This document shows positions 21,925-26,872 of a stretch of 64,000 nucleotides of DNA, piece by piece. Position numbers and translations under genes: made by a program. Each line of letters begins with the position of its first letter. The stretch's first letter is position 1. The DNA comes from Deltaproteobacteria bacterium (GTDB taxonomy: Bacteria > Myxococcota > Myxococcia > SLRQ01): positions 62,001-126,000 of the forward strand of contig JARGFU010000017.1 of assembly GCA_029210625.1 (NCBI GenBank), in the 5' to 3' direction. The notes beneath the pieces are model-generated. The model did not search any database. It had not been told where the DNA came from and saw only the letters and a list, made by a program, of their open reading frames with translations.

Positions 21925-23349
21925 TTGGGGTCCTTCCACGTCCGTCCCGCGTCTCTGACGCGCTCGTCGATCTGTGTCTTCCTGGCCTCGGCCAGCCTCG
22001 CCTGCGGGCCGGCCGCCATGCCGCCCGTCGAGGAGCCGGTCCTCGCCCTCCCGCCCCTGATGTGGGGCGGGGTGGCCGCCGAGGATCTCGATCCCGACCC
22101 CGACGTGGTGGAGGTGTCGCTGCGGGCCGAGGAGCGCGCCCTCGATCTGGGCGGCGGCAAGGTCCTGCCGATGTTCACCTACAACGGGCTCTTCCCGGGC
22201 CCGCGGATCGAGGCGAAGGTCGGTGACGAGGTCGTCGTGCACTTCTTCAACGACCTCGACACGCCGCAGACGATCCACTGGCACGGCCTGCGGATCTCCG
22301 ACCAGATGGACGGCTCGCCCCGGATCCAGGATCCGGTCGAGCCCGGCGGCTCCTTCGAGTACCGCTTCGTCGTCCCGGACGCGGGCACCTACTGGTACCA
22401 CCCCCACGTCCGCTCGAACGTGGGCGTCGAGCGCGGCCTCCAGGGCGCGCTGGTGGTCCACGACCCGGCCGATCCCCACTTCGATCTCGAGCGGGTGCTC
22501 GTGCTCGACGACCTGCTCCTGGGGATGGACGGGAACCCTCCCCCCTTCCTGGCGACGCCGATGGAGCAGCGCCACGGCCGCCAGGGCAACGTGATGCTGA
22601 CCAACGGCCAGCTCGGGGGGACCGTCACGGCCGAGGCCGAGGTGGGCCAGGTGGAGCGCTGGCGCCTCGTGAACAGCGCCAACGCCCGGACCATGGTCCT
22701 CACCGTGGCGGGGGCCTCCTTCTGGGTGGTGGGCACCGACGGGGGGCGCCTCCCGGAGCCCTACCGCACCAGCCGGCTCACCCTCACCACGGGGCAGCGC
22801 TACGACCTGCAGGTCCACTACGAGACCCCGGGGCGAGTGACCCTCGTCAACCGCATGACGAACCACGACATGCAGGGCAACCACGTCATGGTGGTGGAGG
22901 AGAGCTTCTCGGTCTCCGTCCTCGACACCCGCCGGGCCCCCACCGAGATCGTCTGGGCGCCGATGGCGGACTTCCCCGAGCGCGCCATCGATCGCTGGGA
23001 GGAGATGATCTTCGACCTGGTGCAGGGGGACGACGGCCTGGAGTGGCGGATCAACGGGCGCACCAACCCCATGCGGCCGATCTACACCTTCGAGGAGGGG
23101 GACACCGTCTCCCTGCGTCTGCGTAACGAGTCGGATCACGAGCACCCCTTCCACCTCCACGGGCAGTTCTTCGAGATCGCCGGCACGGCCAACCCGGGCC
23201 TGAAGGACACCGTGCTCGTCACGGCCTGGAGCGATGTGTTGATCACGGCCTACCTCGACAACCCGGGCCGCTGGATGGCCCACTGCCACAACCTCGAGCA
23301 CGCCGAGCTGGGGATGATGGCCGAGATCCTCATCAACCCGGCCCCCTGA
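21925..23349 (+). CDS. Multicopper oxidase lipoprotein, copy 1
   Basis: 474 residues from a TTG start preceded by GGGGAGAAGAAGA. A lipoprotein signal (hydrophobic core then LASASLAC, Cys27) predicts membrane anchoring outside the cytoplasm. All four copper motifs are present: HWHG, WYHPHV, HPFHLHG and HCHNLEHAELGM, the last with the T1 copper Cys, His and an axial Met. Three cupredoxin domains fit the length. Substrate (metal ion, phenol or other) cannot be read; there is no Met-rich CueO-like insert. It is paralogous to and directly followed by the next gene. Confidence 0.93.
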   Translation: MGSFHVRPASLTRSSICVFLASASLACGPAAMPPVEEPVLALPPLMWGGVAAEDLDPDPDVVEVSLRAEERALDLGGGKVLPMFTYNGLFPGPRIEAKVGDEVVVHFFNDLDTPQTIHWHGLRISDQMDGSPRIQDPVEPGGSFEYRFVVPDAGTYWYHPHVRSNVGVERGLQGALVVHDPADPHFDLERVLVLDDLLLGMDGNPPPFLATPMEQRHGRQGNVMLTNGQLGGTVTAEAEVGQVERWRLVNSANARTMVLTVAGASFWVVGTDGGRLPEPYRTSRLTLTTGQRYDLQVHYETPGRVTLVNRMTNHDMQGNHVMVVEESFSVSVLDTRRAPTEIVWAPMADFPERAIDRWEEMIFDLVQGDDGLEWRINGRTNPMRPIYTFEEGDTVSLRLRNESDHEHPFHLHGQFFEIAGTANPGLKDTVLVTAWSDVLITAYLDNPGRWMAHCHNLEHAELGMMAEILINPAP

Positions 23350-23458
23350 CCCGGTCAGGTGTCTTGACGGTCGGTTGCGGGGCGCCCGCGGGGGTCCATC
23401 CTTGGGCCTGGCCGCCAGGGACCGCTCCGGTCCTCGGGCGCCCGTTGGGGAGAGTCAC

Positions 23459-24889
23459 ATGAAGCCGATGTCCGTCCGCCGTCCCTCCGTCCTGATTCCT
23501 TCGATCGCCGCCGCGCTGCTCCTCGGGAGCACCGCCTGCGGGGCCGAGCCCACCCCGGAGCTCCCCGGGGGCGACACGCCGGAGGTGCTCGCGCCGGTCG
23601 TCTGGGGCGGGGAGGTGGCAAAGGACGTCGATCCCGATCCGGACGTGGTCGAGGTCTGGCTGACCTCGGAGGAGAAGGAGATCGATCTGGGCGGCGGCAC
23701 GGTGCTGCCGATGCTCACCTACAACGGCCTCTACCCGGGCCCCCGCATCGAGGCGAAGGTGGGCGACGAGGTGGTGGTCCACTTCGTCAACGGCCTCCGG
23801 GAGCCCCAGACGATCCACTGGCACGGCCTGCGGATCTCCGACCAGATGGACGGCTCGCCGCGCATCCAGTCCCCGGTGGAGCCCGGCGACTCCTTCGAGT
23901 ACCGCTTCGTCGTCCCGGAGGCGGGCACCTTCTGGTACCACCCGCACGTGCGCTCGAACGTGGCGGTGGAGCGGGGCCTGCAGGGCGCGCTGGTCGTCCA
24001 CGACCCGGCCGATCCCCACTTCGATCTGGAGCGGGTGATCGTGGTCGACGACCTGCTGCTGAACGCCGATGGCACCCTGGCCAGCTTCTTCGGCAGCCAC
24101 ATGGAGGGGATGCACGGGCGCTGGGGCAACGTGCTGCTCACCAACGGCCGCTTCTCCGAGCTCGCCACCGGCGAGGCCGTGGTGGGCCAGGCCGAGCGCT
24201 GGCGGATCGTGAACACCGCGAACGCCCGCACCATGAGCCTCTCGGTCGAGGGCGCCGACTTCTGGGTGGTGGGCACCGACGGCGGTCGCCTGCCGACCCC
24301 CTACCGCAGCAGCCGGATCACGGTGGCGGTGGGGCAGCGCTACGACCTCGAGGTGCACTACGACGCCGTGGGCGAGGTGAGGCTCTACAACCATGTCCTC
24401 TCCTCCGATGCCCAGGGCAACACCGTCGAGCTGGCGCTGCCCAACCTGGTCGTCGACGTGGTGGACACCGCTCGCGCCCCGACCGAGATCGTCTGGGCGC
24501 CGAAGGACGCCCTCCCCGAGCGGAGCGTCGATCGCAGCGAGGAGCTGGTCTTCGACGCCGTGCAGGGCGCGAACGGCCTCGAGTGGCGGATCAACGGCGT
24601 CTCCCACGGGATGGAGCCCCTCTTCACCTTCGCCGAGGGCGAGACGGTCGAGCTGCTCCTGCGCAACACCCTGGGGCCCGAGCACCCCTTCCACCTCCAC
24701 GGTCAGTTCTTCGCGATCGCGGGGACCGCCCAGCCCGGCCTGAAGGACACGGTGCTGGTGCCGGGGATGAGCGACGTGCGCATCACGGCCTTCATGGACA
24801 ACCCGGGACGGTGGATGGCCCACTGCCACATCCTCGAGCACGCCGAGCTCGGGATGATGTCCGAGATCGTCGTCACGCCGGCCCCCTAG
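23459..24889 (+). CDS. Multicopper oxidase lipoprotein, copy 2
   Basis: About 476 residues. ATG 23459 is chosen because it follows GGGGAGAGTCAC and yields a proper lipoprotein signal (LLLGSTAC, Cys27); an upstream in-frame ATG lacks both. The copper sites are HWHG, WYHPHV, HPFHLHG and HCHILEHAELGM, complete for T1, T2 and T3 centres. Long blocks are identical to copy 1 (the stretch from TIHWHGLRISDQMDGSPRIQ and the block around WVVGTDGGRLP), so the pair arose by tandem duplication. The two differ most in the signal region and in the middle domain. Confidence 0.93.
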   Translation: MKPMSVRRPSVLIPSIAAALLLGSTACGAEPTPELPGGDTPEVLAPVVWGGEVAKDVDPDPDVVEVWLTSEEKEIDLGGGTVLPMLTYNGLYPGPRIEAKVGDEVVVHFVNGLREPQTIHWHGLRISDQMDGSPRIQSPVEPGDSFEYRFVVPEAGTFWYHPHVRSNVAVERGLQGALVVHDPADPHFDLERVIVVDDLLLNADGTLASFFGSHMEGMHGRWGNVLLTNGRFSELATGEAVVGQAERWRIVNTANARTMSLSVEGADFWVVGTDGGRLPTPYRSSRITVAVGQRYDLEVHYDAVGEVRLYNHVLSSDAQGNTVELALPNLVVDVVDTARAPTEIVWAPKDALPERSVDRSEELVFDAVQGANGLEWRINGVSHGMEPLFTFAEGETVELLLRNTLGPEHPFHLHGQFFAIAGTAQPGLKDTVLVPGMSDVRITAFMDNPGRWMAHCHILEHAELGMMSEIVVTPAP

Positions 24890-25024: not shown

Positions 25025-26872
25025 ATGACCGCTCTGAGAGACCCCTTCGCGACCGGAACCGTGGTCCACACCAACGCCTACCGTATCCGGCGCTTCCTGA
25101 ACTGGTTCCCCCTCGGGCTCACCTACGCCTTCCTCTACATGGGGCGGTACAACCTGACCGTCGCCAAGACCGAGCTCGGCAGCCTGATGACGAAGGAGGA
25201 CTTCGGCATCATCTTCGGTGTCGGAACGGTCACCTACGGCTTCGCCTTCCTCCTGAACGGTCCGCTCACCGACCGCTTCGGGGGCAAGAAGGCCATGCTG
25301 GTCGCGGCCCTCGGCTCGGGGCTCATGAACCTGATCATGGGCTACGCGATCTGGACCCTCGCGGGGAACCCGACGAGCGACATCAGCATCCGGGTGCTCT
25401 TCTCCTTCCTCTACGCGGCGAACATGTACTTCCAGTCCTTCGGGGCGGTCGCGATCGTGAAGGTGAACGCCTCCTGGTTCCACGTGAAGGAGCGAGGAGG
25501 CTTCTCGGGGATCTTCGGCACGATGATCTCCTCGGGCATCTTCCTCGCGTTCACGGTCAACGGCTGGATCGTGGATCTGACCCGGACCGCCGGCTCGGCG
25601 CAGACCTGGTGGGTCTTCTTCGCTCCCACGATCGCCCTCTGGGCGATGTTCGTGATCGAGCTCATCCTCCTCAAGGATCGCCCGGGTCAGGCGGGCCACG
25701 AGGACATCGAGACCGGTGACGACGACTCGGGCGACGACGGCAGCCCGATCAGCACCTGGGCGATCCTCAGGCGGATCTTCACCCACCCGATCATCCTCAC
25801 CGTGGCGTTCATCGAGTTCTGCACCGGCGTGCTGCGCAACGGCGTGATGCACTGGTTCCCGATCTACGCCAAGGAGGTCTGGGTCCTGCCGAGCGACCAC
25901 TGGCTGGTCTACGGAAACTGGGGTGAGCTCTACACGATCCTGCCCTTCTTCGGGGTGGCCGCGGTCCTCATGATCATCGGCGGCATCCGCAAGCAGAAGG
26001 GCAAGCCCTCGGCGGTCTTCTGGTCCCTGGGCGGCGTCCTCTTCCTGGTGCCCTTCATGCAGGGCGGCTGGGGTGGCCTCCTGATGGTCGCCGGCGTCAT
26101 CGGCGGCAACGTGGCGGGCTGGGTGAGCGACATCGTCTTCCAGAGCCGGCGGGCGCCGGTGGCGGCCCTGCTCTACGGCCTGCTCTGCGTGGCCTCCGTC
26201 GGCATGTTCTTCAGCCTCGGCTCCACGACCAACGAGGTGTCCTGGGCCAAGGAGGGGAAGACCCAGCTGCAGCCCGGCGACGTGATCACCGAGGTGAACG
26301 GCCAGGCGACCGAGGACTGGACCGACATCTCGAGAGAAGTGGCCTGCCTCCCGGCCGCCTGCGAGGGCGACGCGAAGTGGGACACCGAGAAGTGCTGGTG
26401 CTCGACCAAGCCCAAGCTCACCGCCGACGACCTGAAGGTCAGCACCGGCGTCATCCCGGTCGTGGTGCAGCGCGGGGGTGAGACCCTCACGTTGGAGCTG
26501 AAGGATCCCAAGCCCAAGATGCGGGCGGGTGACAAGCGCAAGCTCCCGGCGGGGCCGGTCCTGCCTCTCTCCCCCACCTGGCTCGGGGTGATCGTCTTCC
26601 TGATGAGCCTGGCGGTCATCGGCACCCACGGCCTGCTCTCGGGCACCGCCACCATGGACTTCGGCGGGAAGCGGGGCGCGGCCACCGCGGTCGGCGCCAT
26701 CGACGGCTTCGTCTACCTCGGGACCGGGCTGCAGTCCTTCTCCCTCGGGATCATCACCTCCTGGGATTGGAGCTACTGGCCCGTGTTCCTCTTCCCCTTC
26801 GGGCTGCTCGGTCTCTACCTGCTGACCCGGATCTGGAACGCCGTGCCCAAGGGCAAGAAGGCGGCCCACTGA
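25025..26872 (+). CDS. MFS transporter (GlpT/OPA-like) with a PDZ-like domain inserted between two late helices
   Basis: About 615 residues; ATG 25025 follows AGGAGACGATCGAG. Residues 1-390 and 515-615 read as a 12-helix MFS protein of the organophosphate:phosphate antiporter type (LNWFPLGLTYAFLYMGRYNLTVAK; later TMDFGGKRGAATAVGAIDG). Between about residues 398 and 513 there is a hydrophilic insert with a PDZ core (LQPGDVITEVNGQATEDWTD; VIPVVVQRGGETLTLELKD) and four cysteines in 17 residues (CLPAAC, CWC). By comparison with GlpT topology, the insert falls in the TM9-TM10 loop, on the periplasmic side. Substrate unknown; the PDZ role is inference. Confidence 0.85.
   Translation: MTALRDPFATGTVVHTNAYRIRRFLNWFPLGLTYAFLYMGRYNLTVAKTELGSLMTKEDFGIIFGVGTVTYGFAFLLNGPLTDRFGGKKAMLVAALGSGLMNLIMGYAIWTLAGNPTSDISIRVLFSFLYAANMYFQSFGAVAIVKVNASWFHVKERGGFSGIFGTMISSGIFLAFTVNGWIVDLTRTAGSAQTWWVFFAPTIALWAMFVIELILLKDRPGQAGHEDIETGDDDSGDDGSPISTWAILRRIFTHPIILTVAFIEFCTGVLRNGVMHWFPIYAKEVWVLPSDHWLVYGNWGELYTILPFFGVAAVLMIIGGIRKQKGKPSAVFWSLGGVLFLVPFMQGGWGGLLMVAGVIGGNVAGWVSDIVFQSRRAPVAALLYGLLCVASVGMFFSLGSTTNEVSWAKEGKTQLQPGDVITEVNGQATEDWTDISREVACLPAACEGDAKWDTEKCWCSTKPKLTADDLKVSTGVIPVVVQRGGETLTLELKDPKPKMRAGDKRKLPAGPVLPLSPTWLGVIVFLMSLAVIGTHGLLSGTATMDFGGKRGAATAVGAIDGFVYLGTGLQSFSLGIITSWDWSYWPVFLFPFGLLGLYLLTRIWNAVPKGKKAAH

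What the first reader, a model, noticed from the sequence alone, without database searches (positions are those of the whole stretch)
26219..26567. PDZ-like domain with four cysteines inserted in a late periplasmic loop of an MFS/OPA transporter
Seen: the frame is continuous and a 115-residue hydrophilic segment with LQPGDVITEVNGQATEDW and VVVQRGGETLTLELKD splits a GlpT-like helix set between what should be TM9 and TM10. Known: MFS loops are normally short, and RseP-type PDZ domains sense protein C-termini or lipoproteins in the periplasm. Inference: a transporter whose activity or stability is gated by a periplasmic peptide ligand. CLPAAC and CWC could form disulfides that lock the insert.
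Basis: partly seen in the sequence, partly recalled or inferred. Interest (0 to 1): 0.7.

Follow-up and report, generated by a model that had tools for sequence, protein, structure and literature searches.

The report
Sugar-phosphate-type transporter carrying a PDZ domain
This bacterial membrane transporter, related to the sugar-phosphate carriers, has a protease-style PDZ domain, probably stapled by conserved cysteine pairs, inserted into one outside loop; the same build recurs in about 35 mostly uncultured relatives, so it is a real, inherited and apparently unreported combination whose job is still unknown.

Summary
ORF 25025-26872 (615 aa) is one continuous frame. It is an OPA-type MFS transporter (closest solved folds SLC37A2, G6PT, GlpT) with a ~115-residue periplasmic insert between canonical TM9 and TM10. 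AlphaFold models the whole protein (pLDDT 90) and the insert alone (pLDDT 91). The insert matches site-2-protease (RseP/MucP type) PDZ domains by profile (E 5e-10) and by fold. All four cysteines (441, 446, 457, 459) are kept in 30 of 33 distinct inserts; one genus lost exactly 441 and 457 together, which points to disulfides 441-457 and 446-459. All PDZ forms carry the hairpin and all hairpin forms are one clade (support 98); six members keep the hairpin but lack the PDZ. An unrelated domain sits in the same loop in KSB1 relatives. Known parallels at this loop are PepT1/2 (Ig domains) and OATPs (Kazal domain). Gating by a peptide ligand is not supported: the carboxylate-loop and groove positions are not specially conserved. 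I favour a rigid periplasmic docking or cover domain; its partner and the substrate are unknown. New variant of a known kind.

The parts
25025..26872 (+). OPA-type MFS transporter gene, 615 aa, start ATG 25025
   Evidence: translation; MFS_1 E 6.7e-21; AGGAG upstream; GlpT profile match E 6e-20; best solved folds SLC37A2/G6PT/GlpT
25073..25669 (+). N-terminal bundle, TM1-TM6 (residues 17-215), with invariant R41 at the GlpT R45 position
   Evidence: AlphaFold helices; invariant columns; alignment to 1pw4
25787..25882 (+). canonical TM7 (residues 255-286), invariant R271 at the GlpT R269 position
25928..26062 (+). extra transmembrane hairpin (residues 302-346) inserted between TM7 and TM8; basic turn RKQKGK on the cytoplasmic side
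   Evidence: absent in plain orthologs; two helices in the model; hydrophobicity and positive-inside count; shared by one clade, SH-aLRT 98
26150..26215 (+). canonical TM9 (residues 376-397), immediately before the insert
26228..26572 (+). periplasmic PDZ insert (residues 402-516) of site-2-protease type
   Evidence: AlphaFold pLDDT mostly 92-98; profile vs A. aeolicus S2P PDZ tandem E 5.4e-10; Foldseek 3wkm E 8.8e-5, MucP PDZ2 TM-score 0.75
26345..26401 (+). four-cysteine module C-x4-C-x10-C-x-C (residues 441-459) with invariant W452, between PDZ helix alpha-2 and the next long strand; disulfides 441-457 and 446-459 inferred
   Evidence: C446 and C459 in 33 of 33, C441 and C457 in 30 of 33 with paired loss in one genus
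26522..26557 (+). RAGDxRxLxxxP segment (residues 500-511) joining the PDZ to TM10; most conserved stretch of the insert
   Evidence: G502, R505, P511 invariant in 33 inserts
26573..26662 (+). canonical TM10 (residues 517-546)
26678..26830 (+). canonical TM11 and TM12 (residues 552-602)

Best explanation
Shown by sequence and models: an inner-membrane OPA-type MFS transporter gained a transmembrane hairpin in the TM7-TM8 loop, and a site-2-protease-type PDZ domain with a four-cysteine module in the periplasmic TM9-TM10 loop. Inferred: the cysteines form disulfides 441-457 and 446-459, which make the PDZ a rigid body, and the conserved RAGDxR...P linker fixes it to TM10 above the C-terminal bundle. 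Most likely role (inferred): an accessory periplasmic docking or cover domain. It would bring a periplasmic protein partner to the mouth of the transporter or shield the C-bundle, while the core carries out antiport of a phosphorylated solute as in GlpT and SLC37. I give the architecture about 0.95 and the docking/cover role about 0.45.
For: Architecture. Inheritance: 35 PDZ-bearing rows inside one hairpin clade. Disulfides: paired loss of C441 and C457 with C446 and C459 kept in L032/L033/L035, and the loop is predicted on the oxidising side. Accessory rather than core role: six hairpin-only members with an intact core and an unrelated domain in the same loop in KSB1 relatives. Parallels: PepT1/2 carry Ig domains inserted in the MFS fold that bind trypsin and can be removed without loss of transport (PMC4597091); OATPs carry a Kazal-like domain in ECL5 above the C-bundle (PMC10507018). 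Linker conservation.
Against: No partner protein was identified; the linked P-loop gene product has no obvious route to the periplasm and is also linked to forms without a PDZ. The hairpin-only forms may be losses that changed function. Docking cannot be told from gating with these data, and no model coordinates were available to measure the pose.
Confidence: 0.45

Rival explanations
1. Ligand-gated transporter: the PDZ binds the C-terminus of a periplasmic peptide or protein and opens or closes the transporter.
For: PDZ fold of the RseP/MucP type is real, and a MucP PDZ2 structure with a bound peptide, 7xfu, is among the hits. The domain is joined to TM10 by a highly conserved segment.
Against: Carboxylate-loop position 398-403 and beta-2 residues 406-407 are variable. 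Members without the PDZ keep the whole core.
Confidence: 0.15
2. Structural stabiliser or shield: the disulfide-stapled PDZ and the hairpin only brace the C-terminal bundle or protect the loop from proteases; no partner.
For: PDZ core, cysteine module and linker are the conserved parts, not the groove. The OATP Kazal domain sits above the C-bundle with no known function.
Against: The domain is absent in relatives that keep the hairpin, so the core does not need it. Invariant W452 in the cysteine module may be more than bracing needs (inference).
Confidence: 0.25
3. Sensor (transceptor) like UhpC: the protein reports an outside phosphorylated solute or envelope state rather than transporting.
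For: Part of the protein matches the UhpC receptor model (E 6.7e-17, below its cut-off). RseP-type PDZ domains belong to stress signalling (established knowledge).
Against: No sensor kinase was noticed beside it in the window or in the neighbour clusters inspected, though neighbours were not fully annotated. The transport arginines R41 and R271 are invariant.
Confidence: 0.1
4. Metal site: the four cysteines bind a metal instead of forming disulfides (two copper-oxidase-like genes lie upstream).
For: Two tandem multicopper oxidase genes end 136 nt upstream.
Against: A three-sequence lineage lost exactly two of the four cysteines. No multicopper oxidase lies near any relative examined.
Confidence: 0.05

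Closest known systems
OPA family transporters GlpT, UhpC, PgtP and SLC37 (G6PT, SLC37A2)
   Same: MFS fold, best structural matches, conserved TM1 and TM7 arginines
   Different: extra TM hairpin after TM7 and PDZ insert after TM9; below the curated cut-offs of the GlpT, UhpC and PgtP models; GlpT H165 and K80 positions not kept, judged by eye in the alignment
Site-2 protease (RseP, MucP, A. aeolicus aq_1964) PDZ domains
   Same: PDZ order beginning at beta-2 straight after a membrane helix; profile and fold match
   Different: single PDZ, four-cysteine module inserted after alpha-2, no protease motifs HExxH or LDG in the protein
PepT1/PepT2 (SLC15) extracellular domain
   Same: folded domain inserted within the MFS fold on the outer side, at the TM9-TM10 loop (PMC4597091; exact loop from general knowledge)
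   Different: two Ig-like domains, a peptide transporter of animals; unrelated fold
OATP (SLCO) Kazal-like domain in ECL5
   Same: disulfide-rich domain in extracellular loop 5 above the C-bundle (PMC10507018)
   Different: Kazal fold, animal organic-anion transporters
[quoted passage not shown]
   Same: bacterial MFS transporter with a periplasmic element in the same loop (PMC10576003)
   Different: a small hairpin only, lipid transporter; no PDZ

Membership tests
MFS, OPA family (GlpT/UhpC/SLC37) | MFS fold with two six-helix bundles | tested here: met
   MFS_1 above cut-off; Foldseek to SLC37A2 E 2.9e-10 and GlpT E 4.9e-9
MFS, OPA family (GlpT/UhpC/SLC37) | paired substrate arginines in TM1 and TM7 (GlpT R45, R269) | tested here: met
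   R41 and R271 invariant in 65 sequences and aligned to GlpT
MFS, OPA family (GlpT/UhpC/SLC37) | membership of a named equivalog or subfamily (GlpT, UhpC, PgtP) | tested here: not met
   scores 51-88 bits against cut-offs of 408-748
MFS, OPA family (GlpT/UhpC/SLC37) | organophosphate/phosphate antiport | not testable with these tools
   needs transport assay
PDZ domain, site-2-protease type | PDZ fold | tested here: met
   AlphaFold pLDDT 90.6 and Foldseek top hits nearly all S2P PDZ domains
PDZ domain, site-2-protease type | sequence match: GLxxGDxIxxxNG core and following strands | tested here: met
   profile E 5.4e-10; single sequences just below Pfam cut-offs
PDZ domain, site-2-protease type | conserved carboxylate-binding loop and groove | tested here: inconclusive
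   loop 398-403 and beta-2 face not specially conserved; groove geometry not measured
PDZ domain, site-2-protease type | binds protein C-termini | not testable with these tools
   needs binding assay
Site-2 protease | HExxH and LDG catalytic motifs | tested here: not met
   absent
PepT1/2-type MFS with extracellular domain | domain inserted in the TM9-TM10 loop | tested here: met
   for this protein; PMC4597091 for PepT
PepT1/2-type MFS with extracellular domain | tandem Ig fold | tested here: not met
   PDZ fold instead
OATP Kazal-domain MFS | Kazal-type cysteine-rich domain in ECL5 | tested here: not met
   PDZ fold, four cysteines

The most novel reading that the evidence does not exclude
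An OPA-type transporter whose activity is switched by a disulfide-stapled, protease-derived PDZ domain that reads periplasmic protein C-termini, linking envelope protein status to phosphorylated-solute uptake.
Probability: 0.12. Interest if true: 0.8.

Novelty: new variant of a known kind. Interest (0 to 1): 0.48.

Why it matters
A survey that classified 93% of 7,852 microbial PDZ proteins does not mention transporters or MFS in its main text (PMC6411480), so a PDZ built into a transporter looks unreported. Together with PepT, OATP, Rv1410 and the unrelated KSB1 insert found here, it suggests that the TM9-TM10 outer loop of the MFS fold is a recurrent landing site for accessory domains in bacteria as well as animals. 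The natural series plain, hairpin-only, and hairpin plus PDZ makes it testable what such a domain adds.

Tried and rejected
Frameshift or gene fusion artefact: rejected, 33 distinct inserts in frame; only L086 (a low-coverage metagenome contig) breaks. Single-sequence PDB search: only E 0.13; the profile was needed. Relation between the KSB1 insert and the PDZ: none found (hhalign probability 0.3%); the KSB1 insert has no Pfam family above cut-off. Copper link through upstream multicopper oxidases: not conserved in any relative examined. Conserved neighbours: the two largest neighbour clusters were mostly shadow frames of the transporter gene itself. Linked P-loop gene: no Pfam, NCBIfam or PDB match. 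Literature searches for PDZ-MFS fusions found none. Substrate could not be assigned. Failed or empty steps: one alignment call with wrong coordinates; repeat and promoter scans showed nothing useful.

Full report
Check of the observation. ORF 25025-26872 translates as one open frame of 615 residues. It has a ribosome-binding-like AGGAG before the ATG, and the insert has the same third-position GC (0.95) as the rest of the gene. Pfam finds MFS_1 (E 6.7e-21) and, in the insert, PDZ models just below their cut-offs. Compared with 490-518 aa orthologs in the same class, residues about 286-345 and 402-517 are extra.

Relatives. A scan of one genome per species and of 195 genomes of the phylum, with the relatives, gave 130 loci. 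Three builds occur: plain, hairpin only (L078-L082, L087), and hairpin plus PDZ (35 rows, 33 distinct inserts). A fourth, in the KSB1-type loci L083-L085 and L088, has about 110 unrelated residues without cysteines in the same TM9-TM10 loop. In a tree built without the insert columns, the hairpin-bearing proteins are one clade (41 rows, SH-aLRT 98). Hairpin-only rows fall in two places inside it, so one PDZ gain with two losses is the simplest history, though a quick tree cannot prove the order. L087 keeps a short TPDNVG stretch that resembles the start of the PDZ insert, which hints at loss (by eye).

Fold. AlphaFold with 65 family sequences gives mean pLDDT 90.4 and pTM 0.90, with the insert mostly at 92-98. 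The best solved matches of the whole are SLC37A2, G6PT and GlpT. The family profile matches GlpT at E 6e-20, and the GlpT arginines R45 and R269 correspond to invariant R41 and R271. The insert modelled alone (pLDDT 90.6) matches RseP, MucP and A. aeolicus site-2-protease PDZ domains (3wkm E 8.8e-5; MucP PDZ2 TM-score 0.75). The sequence profile of 29 inserts does the same (E 5.4e-10). The cysteine module lies between PDZ helix alpha-2 (432-440) and the next long strand (476-483). Loop charges are compatible with the positive-inside rule with the PDZ outside and the hairpin turn inside.

Cysteines. C446 and C459 are present in all 33 distinct inserts, C441 and C457 in 30. The three exceptions (L032, L033, L035, one genus) lost C441 and C457 together. 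This is one event, but it is what a 441-457 disulfide predicts and not what a four-cysteine metal site predicts. Pairing 446-459 follows by elimination.

How it may work. Conservation is highest in the PDZ core (GxxxGD, W432), the cysteine module (W452, D453) and the RAGDxR...P linker to TM10. The loop before beta-2, where PDZ domains hold carboxylates, and the beta-2 face are variable. This favours a rigid domain fixed to the C-terminal bundle over a conserved peptide reader, but does not exclude binding of varied partners. PepT1/2 offer a tested precedent: their extracellular domain binds trypsin and can be removed without loss of transport. The OATP Kazal domain sits above the C-bundle with unknown function. 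Rv1410 shows a small TM9-TM10 element in a bacterium. I therefore favour docking or cover, at moderate confidence.

Context. The gene follows two tandem multicopper oxidase genes (68% identical to each other), an arrangement not seen in relatives. An uncharacterised P-loop protein gene lies beside the transporter on the same strand, within 200 nt or overlapping, in 23 of 80 loci across several phyla. It occurs beside plain, hairpin, PDZ and KSB1 forms. The window's genome carries a copy elsewhere. Among 195 genomes, 6 of 8 with the PDZ-type gene have it against 25 of 187 others (Fisher p 2e-4, not corrected for kinship; in one of the eight, G194, the contig ends before the insert). This points to a shared pathway of the transporter core, not to the PDZ.

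Novelty. No paper found describes a PDZ in an MFS transporter; the library holds open-licence papers only. The parts are known, the combination appears new and is inherited in a clade: a new variant of a known kind.

Noticed in passing
L055:7810-8811, L079:2621-3433, L101:7383-8183 and 20 more loci; own genome G000:C6:199240-200205: An uncharacterised P-loop protein family (LALPASGKSE / NGRPAAGKSE motif), with no Pfam, NCBIfam or PDB match, is tightly linked to this transporter family in several phyla, upstream or downstream, often overlapping: probably a functional pair.
   Followed up: partly
L083, L084, L085, L088 (KSB1-type loci), TM9-TM10 loop: An unrelated, cysteine-free domain of about 110 residues (motif RFNKYK) inserted in the same loop of the same transporter family.
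   Followed up: partly
G194:C100:11797-12759 versus G000:C6:199240-200205: The P-loop gene is 87% identical between the window's genome and a genome of the same phylum but another class, far above the ~50% of the other copies: recent transfer or mis-binning.
   Followed up: no
window 21925-23349 and 23375-24889: Two tandem multicopper oxidase genes (68% identical) directly upstream on the same strand.
   Followed up: partly
L086: Transporter homolog loses its frame after about residue 378 in a contig with stated coverage 0.94, probably a sequencing error.
   Followed up: no
L036/L068 and L037/L076: Longer TM7-TM8 inserts (95-96 residues over the region instead of about 61) in two PDZ-bearing lineages; extra content not examined.
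   Followed up: no
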